Below are positions 2,556-59,513 of a DNA stretch of 64,000 bases, in pieces; position 1 is the first letter of the stretch, and each line of letters starts with the position of its first letter. The position numbers and the translations under genes are program-made. The stretch covers positions 62,001 to 126,000 of the forward strand of contig SVKO01000001.1 of assembly GCA_015068455.1 (NCBI GenBank), read 5' to 3'. The notes below the pieces were generated by a model that made no database searches, was not told where the DNA came from, and was given only the letters and a program-made list of their open reading frames with translations. The stretch comes from Oscillospiraceae bacterium (GTDB lineage: Bacteria; Bacillota; Clostridia; Oscillospirales; Oscillospiraceae).

Positions 2556-2759
2556 TCACGGCTCCTTTTTGCGCAGCGAGCGCTTGTTGCCGTACTCGTC
2601 GACAATGTAGGTGTTGTCCAGCTGGGCGGTCAGATTCCGGCGGAAGGCGGCGATGTACTCCCGGCGGAGCTGATCGCGCTCCACGATCTCCTCCGGGCTC
2701 AGGCCCCCGGCCTTGGCCTTGGCGGCCAGCTCGTTGATCCTCTTGATGGTTTTTTCCAT
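2556..2759 (-). CDS. DUF896 (UPF0291) family protein
   Basis: 67 aa, highly charged, mostly helical. The core IKRINELAAKAKAGGL, then LSPEE and RREYI followed by FRRNL, is the DUF896/YnzC signature. Bacillus YnzC is a small cytoplasmic helical-hairpin protein of the SOS regulon, but its function is not established. ATG at 2759 has GAGGG upstream; a longer reading would add nine residues not typical of the family. It is a single-gene unit with its own terminator at 2501-2526. Confidence 0.85.
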   Translation of the reverse strand: MEKTIKRINELAAKAKAGGLSPEEIVERDQLRREYIAAFRRNLTAQLDNTYIVDEYGNKRSLRKKEP

Positions 2760-2891
2760 GGCGCATCCCTCGCTTTGGGTGTTCATTCCATATACGCGCC
2801 GGGCCTCCCGGCTCCCTCCGGGCGGGAGCCGCGGGCCCTGCGGCTGCTTGGGCTTATTCTATCCGGCGGCGGCAGAATTGTCAATCCCGGC

Positions 2892-2920
2892 TTGCTTCGA
2901 TGGATCAGATTGGGTATAAT
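2892..2920 (+). promoter_or_regulatory. Sigma-A type promoter for the 2952-6654 operon
   Basis: TTGCTT (2892-2897), 17-base spacer, TATAAT (2915-2920). The start site would be about 25 bases before the first ATG at 2952. Confidence 0.75.
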
Positions 2921-2951
2921 AGAGAAAATCTTACTGATGGGAGGGACGGTT

Positions 2952-4166
2952 ATGGTCATCGGCGTCATCGGCGGCGGCGCCTCGGGCATGATGGCGGCGC
3001 TGCACGCCTGCCGGGGCGCGCGGGTGATTCTCTATGAGCGCCAGGCCAGGCTGGGCCGCAAGCTCATGGCCACCGGCAACGGCCGGTGCAACCTCTCCAA
3101 CCGCGCCGCGGCAAGCGAACACTACCACGGCGGCGATCCCGGCTTCGTCGGCCCCGCCCTGGCGCGCTTCGGCGTGGACGAGACCCTGGCCTTCTTCCGC
3201 GGTCTGGGCCTGGTCACTGTACAGGAGCCCGACGGGCGGATCTATCCCTTCTCCGACCAGGCCAACAGCGTGTCCGACGTGCTCCGTCTGGCCCTGGAGC
3301 AAAGCGCCGTGGAACTGCGCCTGGGCTGCGAGATCCGCGAACTCCGGTGGGAAAAATCCGGCTTCACCGTCCGCTATGACGGCGGCGCGGACCGGCTCGA
3401 CCGGGTGATCGTGGCCGCCGGCGGTCTGGCCGGCGGCAAGCTCGGCGGCACCGGCGCGGGCTACGACCTGCTCAAATCCCTGGGCCACCGCTGCACGAAG
3501 CTCTACCCCGCCCTGGTGCAGCTGCGCACGGACAACACCTGGGTGCGGTCCTGCAAGGGCGTCCGCGCCCGGGCAAAGGTCACCCTGCTGCGGGGCGACG
3601 CCGTTCTGGCCGTCCAGACCGGCGAGGTGCAGTTCACCGATTTCGGCATCAGCGGCCCCTGCGTCTTCGACCTGTCCCGGGCCTGCGCCGGGCAAAACGG
3701 CCTGACCGCAATGCTGGATCTGTGCCCCTGCCTCGGCGGGGAAGCAATCAAAGAACACCTGCGGTCGCGCTGCGTCCGCTTCCCCGGGCTTCCGCTGGAG
3801 GACCTTCTCACCGGTCTTCTGCACAACCGTCTGGGCCGCACCGTCCTGCGGGAGCGGGGCTTCACGCTGACGCAGTCCTGCGGCAGCCTTACAGAAAAGG
3901 ATTACGGGCGCATCGCCGCTGGGATCAAGCAGTTCCGCCTGCCGGTGCTGGGGGCCATGGATCTGAGCCAGGCCCAGGTCACCGCCGGCGGCATCGCGAC
4001 CTCGGAGTTTGACCCGAACACGCTGGAAAGCCGTCTGGCGCCCGGCCTCTACGCCACCGGCGAGGTGCTGGACGTCGACGGCGACTGCGGCGGGTTCAAC
4101 CTGCAGTGGGCCTGGGCATCCGGCGCGCTGGCGGGCGAAAGCGCCTGCGGGGAGGCAGAATCATGA
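2952..4166 (+). CDS. HI0933/YhiN-family flavoprotein (BaiN-like oxidoreductase)
   Basis: 404 aa. The N-terminus VIGVIGGGASGMMAA is an FAD-binding Rossmann GxGxxG/S motif, followed by LGRKLMATGNGRCNLSN, the signature of the HI0933/YhiN (aminoacetone oxidase/BaiN) family. The C-terminal FAD contact DVDGDCGGFNLQWAW is intact, so the protein is full length. The substrate is not predictable: one family member (BaiN) is implicated in bile-acid dehydroxylation, others are uncharacterised. ATG 2952 follows GGGAGGG; an in-frame extension to 2535 runs antisense to the DUF896 gene and is rejected. It overlaps the next flavoprotein gene by four bases. Confidence 0.88.
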   Translation: MVIGVIGGGASGMMAALHACRGARVILYERQARLGRKLMATGNGRCNLSNRAAASEHYHGGDPGFVGPALARFGVDETLAFFRGLGLVTVQEPDGRIYPFSDQANSVSDVLRLALEQSAVELRLGCEIRELRWEKSGFTVRYDGGADRLDRVIVAAGGLAGGKLGGTGAGYDLLKSLGHRCTKLYPALVQLRTDNTWVRSCKGVRARAKVTLLRGDAVLAVQTGEVQFTDFGISGPCVFDLSRACAGQNGLTAMLDLCPCLGGEAIKEHLRSRCVRFPGLPLEDLLTGLLHNRLGRTVLRERGFTLTQSCGSLTEKDYGRIAAGIKQFRLPVLGAMDLSQAQVTAGGIATSEFDPNTLESRLAPGLYATGEVLDVDGDCGGFNLQWAWASGALAGESACGEAES

Positions 4167-5758
4167 TCCGCATTCGAGATATCGTCCTCACCCCGGAGCA
4201 GGATGAGAGCCAGCTGCTGTATCTGGCCGCCACGGCCCTGGGCATCCCGGCAAACCGGATCGCCTCCATGCAGATCCGCAAAAAATCCATCGACGCCCGC
4301 AAAAAGCCGGACATCCGCATCCTCTACACCCTGGACGTGACCCTGCATTCCGGCGAGCGCCAGGTGCTGCGCCGCTGCCGGAAGGCAGAGCCCGTGAACG
4401 AGCGGTACTACAAGCCGCCGAAGGCCGCCGGGATCCCGGAAACCCGCCCCGTCGTGGTGGGCTTCGGCCCGGCGGGCATGTTCGCCGCCCTGGTGCTGGC
4501 CGAGGCTGGCCTGCGCCCCATCGTGCTGGAGCGGGGCGACGACGCCGTCACCCGCCGGGAGAAGGTGGAGGCCTTCTGGACCGCCGGGCAGCTCGATCCC
4601 GAGAGCAACGTCCAGTTCGGCGAGGGCGGCGCGGGCACCTTCTCCGACGGCAAGCTGAACACCGGCATCCGGGACGAGCGCATCGCCTGGGTCCTGCGCC
4701 AGATGGTCAAATTCGGCGCGCCGGAGGAGATCCTGTATGACGCCAAGCCCCACGTGGGCACCGATTACCTTGTCACTGTGGTGCAGAACCTGCGCAAACG
4801 CATTGAAAAGAAGGGCGGCGAGGTGCGGCTACGTCATCAGCTTACCGGGCTGATCTGTGCCGACGGCACGCTCCGCGCCGTCGAGGTGCACACCCCCGGC
4901 GGAAACGGGCGCATCGACTGCGAGGCTCTGCTCCTGGCCCCCGGCCACAGCGCCCGGGACACCTTCGCCATGCTCCTGGATACGGGCGTGGCCCTGGAAC
5001 CCAAGCCCTTCGCCATGGGTGTGCGCATCGAGCACGCGCAGAACGCCGTGGATCAAGCCCAGTACGGGCGCGCGCGTGCCAATCTGCCCGCTGCATCGTA
5101 TAAATTATCCTGTCATCTGCCCGGCGGCACCGGCGTCTATACCTTCTGCATGTGCCCCGGCGGCCAGGTGGTCGCCGCCGCCTCGGAGGAAGGCGGCGTG
5201 GTGACCAACGGCATGAGCCTCCACGCCCGGGACGGCGAGAACGCCAACAGCGCCCTGCTGGTCTCCCTGCCGGTCCGGGACTTCCCCGATCCATCCCCCC
5301 TGGGCGGCATTCGCTGGCAGCGGGAGATCGAGCGCCGGTGCTTTGAAGCCGGGGGCAATCATTACCATGCGCCTGCCCAGACTGTGGGCGATTTTCTCGC
5401 CGGCAGACCCACGGCGCGATTCGGCAAAGTTACCCCGAGTTACCGCCCCGGCGTGACCCTCTGCGATCTGCACGCCGTCCTGCCGGAGCGCATTACGGAC
5501 GCGCTTGCCGAGGCCCTGCCCCTCCTGGGCTCGCAGATGCCCGGCTTCGACGATCCCGACGCCGTGCTCACCGCCCCGGAGACCCGCAGCTCCAGCCCCG
5601 TGCGCATCGTGCGGGGCGACGACCGCCAGAGTCCCCTGCGGGGCCTGTACCCCTGCGGCGAGGGCGCCGGCTATGCCGGCGGCATCATCTCCGCCGCCGT
5701 GGACGGAATGCGCAGCGCGGAGGCCCTGATCGAACAGCTGAACCATACGACGAGGTGA
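4163..5758 (+). CDS. FAD-dependent dehydrogenase family protein (COG2509-like)
   Basis: 531 aa. After an N-terminal alpha/beta domain (about 1-95, with QIRKKSIDARKK), a Rossmann FAD site VVVGFGPAGMFAAL begins near residue 97. QFGEGGAGTFSDGKLNTG near residue 150 is a family hallmark, and the C-terminal AGYAGGIISAAVDGM binds the cofactor. This family of FAD-dependent dehydrogenases has no assigned substrate. The start ATG overlaps the previous stop (ATGA) and has GGGGAGG upstream. Two unrelated flavoproteins and a hydrolase in one operon suggest a small catabolic or detoxifying set, but this is inference. Confidence 0.85.
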   Translation: MIRIRDIVLTPEQDESQLLYLAATALGIPANRIASMQIRKKSIDARKKPDIRILYTLDVTLHSGERQVLRRCRKAEPVNERYYKPPKAAGIPETRPVVVGFGPAGMFAALVLAEAGLRPIVLERGDDAVTRREKVEAFWTAGQLDPESNVQFGEGGAGTFSDGKLNTGIRDERIAWVLRQMVKFGAPEEILYDAKPHVGTDYLVTVVQNLRKRIEKKGGEVRLRHQLTGLICADGTLRAVEVHTPGGNGRIDCEALLLAPGHSARDTFAMLLDTGVALEPKPFAMGVRIEHAQNAVDQAQYGRARANLPAASYKLSCHLPGGTGVYTFCMCPGGQVVAAASEEGGVVTNGMSLHARDGENANSALLVSLPVRDFPDPSPLGGIRWQREIERRCFEAGGNHYHAPAQTVGDFLAGRPTARFGKVTPSYRPGVTLCDLHAVLPERITDALAEALPLLGSQMPGFDDPDAVLTAPETRSSSPVRIVRGDDRQSPLRGLYPCGEGAGYAGGIISAAVDGMRSAEALIEQLNHTTR

Positions 5759-57318: not shown

Positions 57319-57323
57319 CCGGG

Positions 57324-57860
57324 TTTGCCCCGGAAAAGGAAGAACAGCACCTTCGGTCGATTTGGCGGTGCTTGCACCGCAAAATGATCCTTGTTCTCTG
57401 TTCGGGCGTCCGTTCGCCGGATGCGCTCGAGTCCCGCGCCCCCGCCCGGGGCAAAGCCCAGCGCATGCGGATTTGCCCCGGAAAAGGAAGAACAGCACCT
57501 TCGGTCGATTTGGCGCCGCTTTGCGGCGTCAAATGATCCTTGTTCTCGTTTTGACGTCCGTTTTACAAGACGCACTCCAGTTCTGCGTCCCCGCCCGGGG
57601 CAAAGCCCAGCGCATGCGGATTTGCCCCGGAAAAGGAAGAACAGCACCTTCGGTCGATTTGGCGCCGCTTTGCGGCGTCAAATGATCCTTGTTCTCGTTT
57701 TGACGTCCGTTTTACAAGACGCACTCCAGTTCTGCGTCCCCGCCCGGGGCAAAGCCCAGCGCATGCGGGTTTGTCCCGGAAAAGGAAGAACAGCACCTTC
57801 GGTCGATTTGGCGGTGCTTGCGCCGCCAAATGACCCTTGGTGCTGTTCTGACGTTGTGGT
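57324..57860. repeat. Four tandem ~149-bp repeats with nested palindromes
   Basis: Units begin with TTTGCCCCGGAAAAGGAAG at 57324, 57472 and 57621, and TTTGTCCCGG at 57770 (periods 148, 149, 149); the fourth is truncated near 57860. Each has a palindrome with arms starting AGAACAGCACC (57341-57397, 57489-57546, 57638-57695, 57787-57849) and, at the unit junctions, a second hairpin CCGGGGCAAA / TTTGCCCCGG (e.g. 57446-57481). The period is not a multiple of three, so the repeats do not code for protein. They start right after the flavin reductase stop. Confidence 0.9.
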
Positions 57861-57942
57861 GCGATTGTTCATAACGGACTTGGTAAACCGCAGGTGGGCA
57901 GCATGTTCCCTGAAAAATCGAAAGCCCGATCACACAATAAAA
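57861..57942. other. Spacer between repeats and immunity genes
   Basis: About 80 bases without a gene or clear site; ends at the terminator of the minus-strand gene. Confidence 0.5.
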
Positions 57943-57983
57943 AACACCTCCTTCGGCTCCATCGCAGCCGAAGGAGGTGTTTC
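57943..57983 (-). terminator. Terminator of the toxin/immunity operon
   Basis: 17-bp stem (57943-57959 and 57967-57983) with a seven-base loop; on the minus strand it runs into a T-run. Confidence 0.92.
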
Positions 57984-57997
57984 GTGGGTCATTCCAT

Positions 57998-58306
57998 TCA
58001 GATCATATATTCAGATAGCGCATCCGGATTGTCGGCAAATCCTTTTGCACTCTTTTCAGCTTCTTCAAATCGTGCTTTGATTTCCTCGTTCACCGCGGCG
58101 TACATCACAGGGATCACCTTCAAATCTTCTTCCTTTACAGAGATCATGGCAATGTCGTCTTTTTCTCCGCATTGCGGAAAGTTTACGAGCCATGTCCCAT
58201 TTACGAAATCATCCAGGCAAATCCAGCCATGCATTCCTTTGTGCACACCGTGCTTTGCGTATCTTTCCTTTTCTACCGTTACTTCCACACAATCCATATA
58301 TTGCAT
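57998..58306 (-). CDS. DUF4926-like probable immunity protein, copy 2
   Basis: 102 aa, starting MQYMDCVEVTVEKERYAKHGVHKGM. The small beta-barrel pattern D-x-V-E-V, HKGMHGWICL, TWLVNFPQCG, ISVKEEDLKVIP resembles DUF4926, a family often beside toxin-domain genes such as DUF6883. It is a tandem duplicate of the next gene upstream; they agree over most of residues 1-80 and differ at the C-terminus (EEAEKSAKGF versus DQMDEDQKAI). Acidic, as expected for an immunity protein. GGAGGG precedes the ATG. Immunity role is inferred. Confidence 0.75.
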   Translation of the reverse strand: MQYMDCVEVTVEKERYAKHGVHKGMHGWICLDDFVNGTWLVNFPQCGEKDDIAMISVKEEDLKVIPVMYAAVNEEIKARFEEAEKSAKGFADNPDALSEYMI

Positions 58307-58339
58307 TATTATTTCCCTCCGTACAGTGTTGCTCCCGGC

Positions 58340-58648
58340 TCAGACAAGGTATTTTGACAAATCATCCGGGACGACGGAAATCGCCTTTTGATCCTCATCC
58401 ATTTGATCGAACCTCGCCTTGATCTCCTCGTTCACCGCGGCGTACATCACGGGGATCACCTTCAAATCTTCTTCTTTCACTGAGATTTCAGCGATATCCG
58501 CTTTTTCTCCGCATTGAGGAAAGTTTACGAGCCAGGTGCCGTTAACGAAATCATCCAGGCAGATCCAGCCCTGCATTCCCTTGTGTACGCCGTCCTTCGC
58601 GTATTTCTCTTTTTCTACCGTTACTTCCACACAATCCATATATTGCAT
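58340..58648 (-). CDS. DUF4926-like probable immunity protein, copy 1
   Basis: 102 aa, paralogue of 57998-58306; the first 80 residues are nearly identical (for example GMQGWICLDDFVNGTWLVNF), as are the ribosome sites and the 20 bases around the start codons, so the duplication is recent. ATG 58648 follows GGAGGG, two bases after the stop of the toxin-like gene: the toxin-then-immunity order. Diverged C-termini (about the last 22 residues) may tune binding to different toxin variants. Confidence 0.75.
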   Translation of the reverse strand: MQYMDCVEVTVEKEKYAKDGVHKGMQGWICLDDFVNGTWLVNFPQCGEKADIAEISVKEEDLKVIPVMYAAVNEEIKARFDQMDEDQKAISVVPDDLSKYLV

Positions 58649-58650
58649 TA

Positions 58651-59058
58651 TTATTTCCCTCCATACGGTGTTGATAATTGCAGCCATCCATTTGGATGGA
58701 CCATCCATCCTGTAGTAAAAGACACAGCGTTTCCATTGTCTCTTCGAATAATCGTTACTACGATGCTGATGCGTTGACCTTGATCATTCAGCTTGCCCAA
58801 TTGATAGTCCCCGGAAACGTATTTCTCAAGCCCCTGTCGCTTTGCGACTGCGTTCATTCGGACGATGGCAAAGTCGATCGGCTCCAGAGTGCAATGGCAA
58901 AATGGGTGATGCGGACACGGCGGATGCCTGTCTTCTGTGAAATAGCATCCGTCAAGCTTCAAGCATATTTCACAATGTGTTTTTCCTTCGTCGTGATGTA
59001 TCCACTGGATCCATTGGGGAAAACCTGTCGATTTCCCCGCAAGAATCGTTCCTTTCAT
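58651..59058 (-). CDS. Toxin-like protein with Cys/His motif and DUF6883-like domain
   Basis: 135 aa. Residues about 22-62 hold HCEICLKLDGCYF then PPCPHHPFCHC, the zinc-like C-x-x-C...H-P-x-C-x-C pattern found in phage head-morphogenesis (Mu F/SPP1 gp7) proteins and in some polymorphic toxins. The C-terminal half, EKYVSGDYQLGKLNDQG, then VTIIRRDNGNAVSFTTGWMV and LQLSTPYGGK, resembles DUF6883, a toxin-tip domain. There is no secretion signal, so this could be a cassette cut from a larger toxin. The promoter at 59065-59093 makes its transcript leaderless. Lower GC than the surroundings. Confidence 0.6.
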   Translation of the reverse strand: MKGTILAGKSTGFPQWIQWIHHDEGKTHCEICLKLDGCYFTEDRHPPCPHHPFCHCTLEPIDFAIVRMNAVAKRQGLEKYVSGDYQLGKLNDQGQRISIVVTIIRRDNGNAVSFTTGWMVHPNGWLQLSTPYGGK

Positions 59059-59064
59059 GGTTTT

Positions 59065-59093
59065 ATAGTACAATAATATCCGCTCCGCTTCAA
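59065..59093 (-). promoter_or_regulatory. Promoter of the toxin-like gene (leaderless)
   Basis: Minus strand TTGAAG (59093-59088), 17-base spacer, TACTAT (59070-59065). The start point would fall on the ATG at 59058; no ribosome site is present. Confidence 0.6.
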
Positions 59094-59212: not shown

Positions 59213-59275
59213 AGAACAGCTCCTTCGGTCGATTTGGCGGTGCCTGCGCCGCCAAATGACCCTTAGTGCTGTTCT
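59213..59275. repeat. Fifth copy of the 63-bp palindrome
   Basis: Same element and orientation as 57787-57849, 63 bases long with arms AGAACAGC / GTGCTGTTCT and the inner CGGTCGATTTGGCGGTGC. This solitary copy lies on the other side of the toxin/immunity genes. Confidence 0.85.
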
Positions 59276-59392
59276 GACGCCGCGGCACTGGGCGGCTTCG
59301 CCGCCGTCGCCGGGGCCGTTTCCCGATTGGGGTCAGCGGTGCAAAAAAGCGCCGCCGCCCTGTTCAAGTCCCGCAGCACAAACACGGATACC

Positions 59393-59427
59393 AAAAAGGA
59401 AGGGGCGCAGAGCGTCCCTTCCTTTTT
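59393..59427 (-). terminator. Terminator of tRNA-Leu
   Basis: Stem AAGGAAGGGGCGC / GCGTCCCTTCCTT (one wobble) with an AGA loop and A/T runs on both sides, directly at the 3' end of the tRNA. Confidence 0.85.
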
Positions 59428-59513
59428 GGTGCCGCTGGCGGGAATCGAACCCGCACGCCCGGAAAGGCGAAGGATTTTAAGTCCTTTGCGTCTACCAGTT
59501 CCGCCACAGCGGC
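59427..59513 (-). tRNA. tRNA-Leu (anticodon TAA)
   Basis: 87 bases with encoded CCA (59429-59427). Acceptor stem GCCGCTG pairs with CAGCGGC; the anticodon loop ACTTAAAAT has TAA; a variable arm of class II length (CTTTCCGGGCGTGC region) and the T loop GGTTCGATTCC are present. Reads Leu UUA/UUG codons. It lies at the edge of the accessory patch, a position where elements often insert; I do not see a duplicated 3' end nearby. Confidence 0.95.

What the first reader, a model, noticed from the sequence alone, without database searches (positions are those of the whole stretch)
57998..59058. Compact toxin-like gene with two recently duplicated immunity-like genes
A 135-aa protein joins a phage-head-type Cys/His motif to a DUF6883-like C-terminus and is followed by two near-identical DUF4926-like genes. 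Toxin then immunity order, short spacing, low GC and a duplicated immunity gene with divergent tails look like a polymorphic-toxin cassette or an orphan toxin tip. The combination with the Cys/His motif is unusual.
Basis: partly seen in the sequence, partly recalled or inferred. Interest (0 to 1): 0.7.

Follow-up and report, generated by a model that had tools for sequence, protein, structure and literature searches.

The report
Broken phage toxin, two immunity genes
A gut-type bacterium carries two apparently working immunity genes beside a phage-style toxin gene that has lost the core of its toxin domain, all on what looks like a small mobile cassette parked at the end of a tRNA gene, where related bacteria stack similar one-gene cassettes that often hold anti-virus defences.

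Summary
In detail: a Cys/His + DUF6883-like gene (58651-59073, minus) is followed by two DUF4926-like genes. Toxin and immunity genes recur together, toxin first, across several genera; on one phage contig the pair sits just before the scaffold gene, the minor-head-protein slot. But the window toxin is not "compact": relatives have about 180 aa and hit DUF6883, while the window copy lacks 43 aa with 16 of the 65 most conserved positions, so it is probably inactive. Both immunity copies look selected (24 silent, 5 replacing codon differences). New here: the pair is cargo of a ~1.5-kb element between a tRNA 3' end and a 79-nt end site (RE). RE occurs at 61 strong places in 41 of 301 family genomes, in tandem arrays behind about 25 kinds of gene, several defence-like, and at prophage ends beside tyrosine integrases. 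Best reading: tiny att-flanked elements derived from phage ends (CIME-like) stacking at tRNA genes. The window's own RE is weak (E 0.56, though the best hit in 64 kb and where predicted). Toxicity, protection and mobility are inferred, not shown.

The parts
59427..59513 (-). tRNA-Leu (taa), proposed insertion target; its 3' end is the left edge of the element
   Evidence: ARAGORN; in 14 of 27 related loci a same-strand tRNA lies within 700 nt upstream of the toxin, none on the opposite strand, random expectation 0.55%
59390..59428 (-). terminator-like hairpin directly after the tRNA (aaaaaggaagggacgc...gcgccccttccttttt)
   Evidence: sequence; other cassettes also begin with a terminator hairpin right after the tRNA CCA
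59214..59279 (.). 66-nt repeated hairpin element between tRNA and toxin; also found at the other edge of the element
   Evidence: 95% identical to the copy at 57788-57856; further copies elsewhere in the genome
58651..59073 (-). toxin-family gene, 140 aa from TTG 59073 (135 aa from ATG 59058): Cys/His phage-head-like part + DUF6883 remnant with a 43-residue in-frame internal deletion
58340..58648 (-). immunity-like gene A, 102 aa, DUF4926-like (SH3-like barrel predicted for the family)
57998..58306 (-). immunity-like gene B, 102 aa, 79% identical to A; its leader keeps the toxin 3' end / Shine-Dalgarno stretch, so it may be what is left of a second toxin-immunity unit
57938..57985 (-). intrinsic-terminator-like hairpin after immunity B (cacctccttcggctgcgatggagccgaaggaggtgtttttt)
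   Evidence: sequence read
57857..57893 (-). candidate right end (RE, att-like site), ends in ...CCAAGTCCGTTATGAACAATCGCACCA
   Evidence: best-scoring place for the RE profile in the whole 64-kb window (6.0 bits, E 0.56), at the position and strand predicted from other cassettes; not detected by the stricter model R1
57320..57854 (.). tandem repeat, 3.6 copies of 149 bp, starting right after the candidate RE; each unit carries the 66-nt hairpin

Best explanation
The three genes are a phage-derived toxin-immunity module whose toxin has been disabled. The ancestor is the C-terminal tip of a phage minor-head (MuF-type) polymorphic toxin: a Cys/His motif followed by a DUF6883 domain, with a DUF4926-like immunity gene translated from a Shine-Dalgarno inside the toxin's last codons. 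In the window copy an in-frame deletion removed the N-terminal half of DUF6883, so it probably no longer kills, while two immunity copies are kept. Most likely role: the immunity proteins bind and block DUF6883 toxins made by resident or incoming phages and mobile elements (orphan-immunity protection); the toxin remnant is a passenger. The module is cargo of a small att-flanked element inserted between the 3' end of a tRNA gene and its terminator; such elements descend from the integrase-proximal ends of tyrosine-integrase prophages or satellites, and several accumulate at one tRNA. Shown: gene order, homology, deletion, co-occurrence, tRNA linkage, RE arrays with various cargo, occupied and empty orthologous tRNA sites, RE beside integrases. 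Inferred: toxicity, toxin-immunity binding, protection, mobilisation in trans.
For: Co-conservation: the 8 family genomes with the immunity gene all hold the toxin family, in order toxin then immunity. DUF6883 in 24 of 25 family members at E<1, the exception being the window copy; deletion of alignment columns 79-121, holding 16 of 65 columns conserved at >=90%, while 47 of the 49 retained ones are unchanged. Phage origin: MuF+DUF6883+DUF4926 (L091); small toxin+immunity before the scaffold gene in a terminase/portal/scaffold operon (L195); best BFVD fold hits are minor capsid proteins (E 2e-6, 8e-6). Immunity constraint: 24 synonymous vs 5 nonsynonymous codon differences; of 13 evaluable immunity copies only 6 have a complete toxin upstream. 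The one full-context toxin without immunity (L024 = L074) is frameshifted. Element: tRNA linkage 14/27, 0 opposite, 0.55% expected; RE model built from 16 toxin-cassette ends hits 61 places at E<1e-6 in 41/301 family genomes but only 3 genomes outside the family in a phylum sample of 330 at E<=1e-4; arrays with other cargo; empty orthologous tRNA-Pro sites L182, L183 (and L180 as far as held) vs occupied L179; cassettes 97.8% identical in two genera with no detectable similarity beyond tRNA and RE (L060/L061); RE beside tyrosine integrases in L196, L197, L167 and others. No MuF and no DUF6883 hit elsewhere in the window genome.
Against: No activity of any DUF6883 protein is on record in the library searched, and the PDB fold search gave no toxin or nuclease match. 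The window RE is weak and missed by model R1, and the tRNA-toxin distance is 354 nt instead of the usual 135-155. The retained toxin residues are well conserved and the frame is open, so the remnant may still be made and used. About half of the toxin loci show no complete tRNA close by. Excision or mobility was not seen.
Confidence: 0.6

Rival explanations
1. The shortened protein is a functional compact toxin: the Cys/His part plus the C-terminal sheet of DUF6883 suffices, and the two immunity genes guard against it.
For: Open frame, intact start and Shine-Dalgarno, 47 of 49 conserved retained positions unchanged; two immunity genes kept.
Against: The deletion removes the motif YxKFDPYLF...K...F..WGY...D...L..E, the most conserved part of the domain, and one and a half predicted helices; other family copies are often broken too; PF21814 no longer scores.
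Confidence: 0.12
2. The toxin remnant is kept as a decoy or regulator: it still binds immunity proteins or virion head proteins through the Cys/His part and interferes with assembly of MuF-type phages.
For: Conservation of the Cys/His part; location in a class of cassettes that often carry defence genes.
Against: No direct evidence; conservation may only mean that the deletion is recent; seen in one genome only.
Confidence: 0.1
3. The RE-tRNA structure is only debris of decayed prophages: each small unit is what deletion left of a larger prophage, with no unit mobility of its own.
For: RE lies at prophage ends next to integrase and a cargo gene (L196, L197); partial RE and tRNA remnants are seen (L181); accretion of decayed att-flanked elements is known (PMC5704250).
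Against: Clean, uniform ~1.1-kb units with fixed tRNA-gene spacing, almost identical in two genera without flanking similarity, at Leu, Pro, Ser, Gln and Arg tRNAs; an exact RE 3' end occurs on only 2 stretches of the viral collection.
Confidence: 0.4
4. The two small genes are not immunity but an unrelated operon (for example SH3-like nucleic-acid-binding proteins) that merely travels with the toxin remnant.
For: No family model scores above cut-off; fold hits are generic SH3-like ribosomal or NusG domains.
Against: Strict pairing and translational overlap with the toxin end across genera; profile similarity to DUF4926, which in the same order follows DUF6883 genes.
Confidence: 0.1

Closest known systems
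MuF polymorphic toxins of temperate phages (Jamet et al. 2017, PMC5576092)
   Same: Phage-head Cys/His region, C-terminal toxin domain, small immunity ORF immediately downstream; L091 has the full MuF-DUF6883-DUF4926 layout and L195 the small form in the head operon
   Different: The window protein lacks the MuF domain proper, lies outside any phage head operon and has a gutted toxin domain
DUF6883 (PF21814) / DUF4926 (PF16277) gene pairs
   Same: Full-length relatives match DUF6883; immunity genes resemble DUF4926 by profile and position
   Different: Window toxin does not score; immunity below any Pfam cut-off, longer (102 vs about 65 aa) with a C-terminal helix and variable tail
Orphan toxin/immunity modules of CDI and Rhs systems (from general knowledge)
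   Same: Toxin tip plus immunity without the delivery part, extra immunity copies, toxin decay with immunity kept
   Different: Attached to tRNA-linked att-like elements, not to a cdi or rhs locus
CIMEs / tandem accretion at tRNA or ssrA genes (PMC5704250; Dehalococcoides ssrA islands, PMC3146451)
   Same: Integrase-less units bounded by att-like sites, stacked behind an RNA gene
   Different: Units here are ~1-1.5 kb with one gene or operon, use many different tRNAs, and share only a short core (..CCA) with the target; the end site is a conserved 79-nt motif
Phage/satellite anti-phage hotspots (P2/P4, PMC9122126) and defence cassettes of chromosomal integrons
   Same: Turnover of single defence-like genes next to an integrase or end site
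   Different: No integron integrase or folded attC (RE shows no conserved secondary structure); units persist without the phage

Membership tests
MuF polymorphic toxin | N-terminal MuF (PF04233) domain | tested here: not met
   Window: 11.5 bits against a cut-off of 29.6, only the last 36 model positions; relatives likewise below cut-off; met in L091
MuF polymorphic toxin | C-terminal toxin domain | tested here: inconclusive
   Relatives carry DUF6883; window copy lost half of it; toxicity of DUF6883 untested
MuF polymorphic toxin | Small immunity ORF directly downstream | tested here: met
   2-nt gap, conserved in nearly all loci
MuF polymorphic toxin | Encoded in the head module of a phage or prophage | tested here: not met
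   No MuF elsewhere in the genome, no phage head genes beside it; met for relatives L091 and L195
DUF6883 (PF21814) | Score above the gathering cut-off (27 bits) | tested here: not met
   No hit for the window protein nor anywhere in the genome; full-length relative 37.6 bits
DUF4926 (PF16277) | Score above the gathering cut-off (29.1 bits) | tested here: not met
   No hit for any of 31 members
DUF4926 (PF16277) | Profile-level similarity and SH3-like fold | tested here: inconclusive
   hhalign 68% / score 28.9 against at most 2.5% / 16.4 in 100 column shuffles; predicted five-stranded barrel with SH3-like hits such as NdhS and NusG, none below E 1e-3
CIME (att-flanked element without integrase) | attL and attR sites at the two ends | tested here: inconclusive
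   tRNA 3' end and candidate RE in the window; clear in many relatives
CIME (att-flanked element without integrase) | No integration or transfer genes inside | tested here: met
   Only toxin remnant and two immunity genes between tRNA and RE
CIME (att-flanked element without integrase) | Excision or mobilisation by a helper integrase | not testable with these tools
   Needs reads or experiments
Integron gene cassette array | Structured attC sites and an integron integrase | tested here: not met
   RE has no consensus structure; integrases beside RE are phage-type

The most novel reading that the evidence does not exclude
Oscillospirales-type gut bacteria keep an integron-like bank of minimal mobile cassettes: one gene or operon (toxin-immunity, retron, other defence genes) between a tRNA 3' end and a 79-nt att-like end, moved as ~1-kb units in trans by phage-type tyrosine integrases and stacked at tRNA genes; the window is a decayed example in which only immunity is kept.
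Probability: 0.35. Interest if true: 0.82.

Novelty: new variant of a known kind. Interest (0 to 1): 0.62.

Why it matters
It turns an isolated 'toxin with two antitoxins' into a testable system. (1) DUF6883/DUF4926-like pairs are linked to phage minor-head toxins, so their target and neutralisation can be assayed. (2) The RE motif gives a handle for finding, in one family of gut bacteria, tRNA-linked arrays of small defence-type genes without guessing their function from homology. (3) It bears on how bacteria acquire protection against phage-delivered toxins: immunity genes outlive their toxins in these cassettes.

Tried and rejected
Direct DUF4926 and Pfam/NCBIfam assignment of the immunity genes: no hit. 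tblastn of toxin and immunity against 50,697 phage records: none. First viral scan with the window protein: none; alignments later gave L047, L194, L195. PDB sequence and fold searches for the toxin: no meaningful match, so a nuclease (BECR-like) reading is not claimed. Classical long direct repeats of the tRNA 3' end downstream of the cassette: not found with 24-nt probes; the shared core is only about ...CCA, and the cassette brings its own ACTCSGACCA end. RE as a structured RNA or attC-like hairpin: no consensus structure. The palindrome GTTGYACGGAAACGTGCAAC upstream of the toxin was considered as an integrase arm site; it occurs in toxin and DUF4417 cassettes but not in others, and not recognisably in the window, so it is more likely a shared operator. 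Literature searches for DUF6883 and for tRNA-linked defence cassettes returned nothing relevant, which only covers open-licence papers.

Full report
1. What is there. On the minus strand of the window (G000:C7) lie a 135-aa frame (59058..58651), a 102-aa gene (58648..58340) and a second 102-aa gene (58306..57998). A TTG at 59073, preceded by GGAG, is the likelier toxin start, since relatives begin with the same (M)YYK. GC is about 50% in a 60-65% region. The last toxin codons, TAT GGA GGG AAA TAA TAATG, contain the Shine-Dalgarno of immunity A; a near copy of that stretch also precedes immunity B (24 of 28 nt).

2. The toxin family. In 301 genomes of the same family the toxin is found in 9 and the immunity in 8, and all 8 are among the 9. 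A scan of 85,000 species genomes gave 33 loci, nearly all in Oscillospirales-like Clostridia (Flavonifractor, Pseudoflavonifractor, Lawsonibacter, Clostridium methylpentosum and unnamed relatives; some are the same loci as). An immunity frame follows the toxin in almost every one. Complete members have about 180 aa and match DUF6883 (24 of 25 aligned proteins at E<1, best 2.9e-9). The window protein is the one that does not, because alignment columns 79-121 are missing. These columns hold 16 of the 65 positions conserved at 90% or more; of the 49 retained ones 47 are unchanged. On the AlphaFold2 model of a complete relative (mean pLDDT 83) the deletion removes one helix (100-106), half of another (111-130) and the loop with the KFDPYLF motif, leaving the C-terminal four-stranded sheet. 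I therefore read the window copy as a disabled toxin (inference).

3. Phage origin. The N-terminal Cys/His part scores with head-morphogenesis PHROGs (15 of 25 members with phrog_1657). Two minor capsid proteins are the only fold matches below E 1e-3 in the viral library. In G291 a 528-aa protein has MuF (E 4e-22) and DUF6883 (E 1e-23) and is followed by DUF4926 (E 1e-14) (L091). On viral contig L195 a 182-aa member of our family plus the immunity gene sits between the gene in portal position (no Pfam hit) and a scaffold gene, downstream of a terminase; on L194 the pair follows an amidase gene in a P22-like-portal phage. DUF6883 also occurs as small stand-alone genes with other small partners, in tandem in G006, and at the ends of longer proteins. 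This is the layout of polymorphic toxins, and MuF toxins are the published phage version (PMC5576092).

4. The immunity genes. No Pfam model hits them. A profile of 31 members aligns to DUF4926 with 68% probability; 100 column shuffles reach at most 2.5% (the plain tool run gave 41%, E 3e-4). AlphaFold2 gives a small barrel plus a C-terminal helix (pLDDT 84) with generic SH3-like neighbours. A and B differ at 29 of the first 80 codons, 24 of them silent: both copies look selected, and the duplication is not very recent. Across 13 evaluable immunity copies in the family only 6 have a complete toxin in front (my reading). Pseudoflavonifractor sp. 524-17 has three immunity genes in a row (L062). 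The only toxin in full context without an immunity gene is frameshifted (L024 = L074). So immunity outlives the toxin. An experimentally studied prophage toxin with two immunity proteins (Bxa; PMC11699363) shows that two protectors can be functional, but it is a different toxin.

5. The surprise: a tRNA-linked element. A tRNA gene lies 354 nt upstream of the window toxin on the same strand. The same is true, mostly at 135-155 nt, for 14 of 27 loci with enough sequence (window included); none is on the opposite strand, and random points in the same loci give 0.55%. The tRNAs are Leu, Pro, Ser, Gln and Arg. In others a truncated tRNA 3' end stands at that place. Downstream of the immunity gene a conserved 79-nt motif (RE) ends in ACTCGGACCA or ACTCCGACCA and is followed by what looks like a displaced tRNA terminator or by the left end of the next unit. 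A sequence model of RE (R1, 16 members) finds 61 places with E<1e-6 in 41 of 301 family genomes (my count), but only 3 genomes outside the family in a phylum sample of 330 at E<=1e-4.

6. RE bounds arrays of small units with other cargo. Examples: four REs 1.1-1.6 kb apart in G064, three about 1 kb apart in G275. The 37 genes found closest before an RE fall into about 25 unrelated groups. Cargo includes DUF4417 proteins (8), a type VI-like retron reverse transcriptase (PADLOC E 7e-76), DUF1828/1829 (PDC-M24B, E 1e-97), FRG (PDC-S15), a phosphorylase-type effector (PDC-M60C, E 8e-44), an AAA/Toprim-like ATPase and NYN. Not every ORF listed need be true cargo; some are probably host genes next to an RE.

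7. Is it inserted, and by what? In genus g65 the orthologous tRNA-Pro locus carries the toxin cassette in G200 (L179) but has no RE within 1.5 kb in L182 and L183, nor in the 36 nt held for L180. Cassettes of two genera are 97.8% identical from tRNA to RE, with no BLAST similarity beyond (L060/L061). On two viral contigs RE follows 'tyrosine integrase - one cargo gene' (L196, L197), and integrase homologues lie near RE in L167, L141, L169, L151 and L177 (L141 is from the same genome place as L167). So RE is most simply the att end of tyrosine-integrase elements, and the small units are integrase-less att-flanked derivatives. The published term for such a thing is CIME, with tandem accretion (PMC5704250, PMC3146451). 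Whether they move as units or are only debris is open.

8. Fit of the window. The window shows tRNA-Leu, a terminator, a repeated hairpin, toxin remnant, immunity A, immunity B, terminator, and a candidate RE at 57893-57857. That RE is weak (6 bits, E 0.56) and was missed by R1, but it is the best place in 64 kb and where it should be. The sister species G104 keeps a fragment of the toxin fused to an immunity gene directly at tRNA-Pro. The window genome has no MuF or DUF6883 hit elsewhere, so no cognate delivery system is seen.

9. Mechanism. Most likely the immunity proteins neutralise DUF6883 toxins of incoming phages or neighbouring elements; the local toxin no longer matters. Shown are anatomy, homology and distribution; toxicity, binding, protection and mobility are inferences. 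The biochemical activity of DUF6883 stays open: the PDB search was negative.

10. Novelty. The toxin-immunity pair is a new, partly decayed member of a known kind. The RE-bounded cassettes at tRNA genes look like a new variant of att-flanked accreted elements, and I found no description in the open-licence library, which is not proof of absence.

Noticed in passing
L155 (G064:C3:216000-230000), L156 (G275:C50), L160, L163-L165, L174: Tandem arrays of RE-bounded single genes, several defence-like (retron type VI-like RT with a small membrane protein upstream, FRG, DUF1828/1829, AAA-Toprim, PNP-type effector, Mrr-like).
   Followed up: partly
L155, L168, L173, L159, L166, L077: DUF4417 genes are the commonest RE cargo found (8 of 37) and some share with toxin cassettes the upstream palindrome GTTGYACGGAAACGTGCAAC; similar genes also stand beside DUF6883/DUF4926 in other genomes (L099, L096).
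   Followed up: partly
window 57320-57854: 3.6 x 149-bp tandem repeat containing a 66-nt hairpin that is also found between tRNA-Leu and the toxin and at a few other places in the genome (C5:256977, C7:150269).
   Followed up: partly
L107, L111, L113 (G006:C121): Three consecutive stand-alone DUF6883 genes, each followed by a small gene that does not look like DUF4926: a toxin-immunity array with another immunity family.
   Followed up: no
L155, L164, L165, L167: Four genera share a similar neighbouring gene (MADDKKN-like start, opposite strand) next to RE arrays with different cargo: a possible common hotspot.
   Followed up: no
L047 (viral contig), 2728-5102: Toxin-immunity pair directly downstream of a large serine recombinase (Resolvase/Recombinase/Zn ribbon) instead of a tRNA.
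   Followed up: partly
alignment A4: C-terminal tails of the immunity proteins vary strongly or are absent, yet many end in a shared SDYMI/SDYRI-like motif; function unknown.
   Followed up: no
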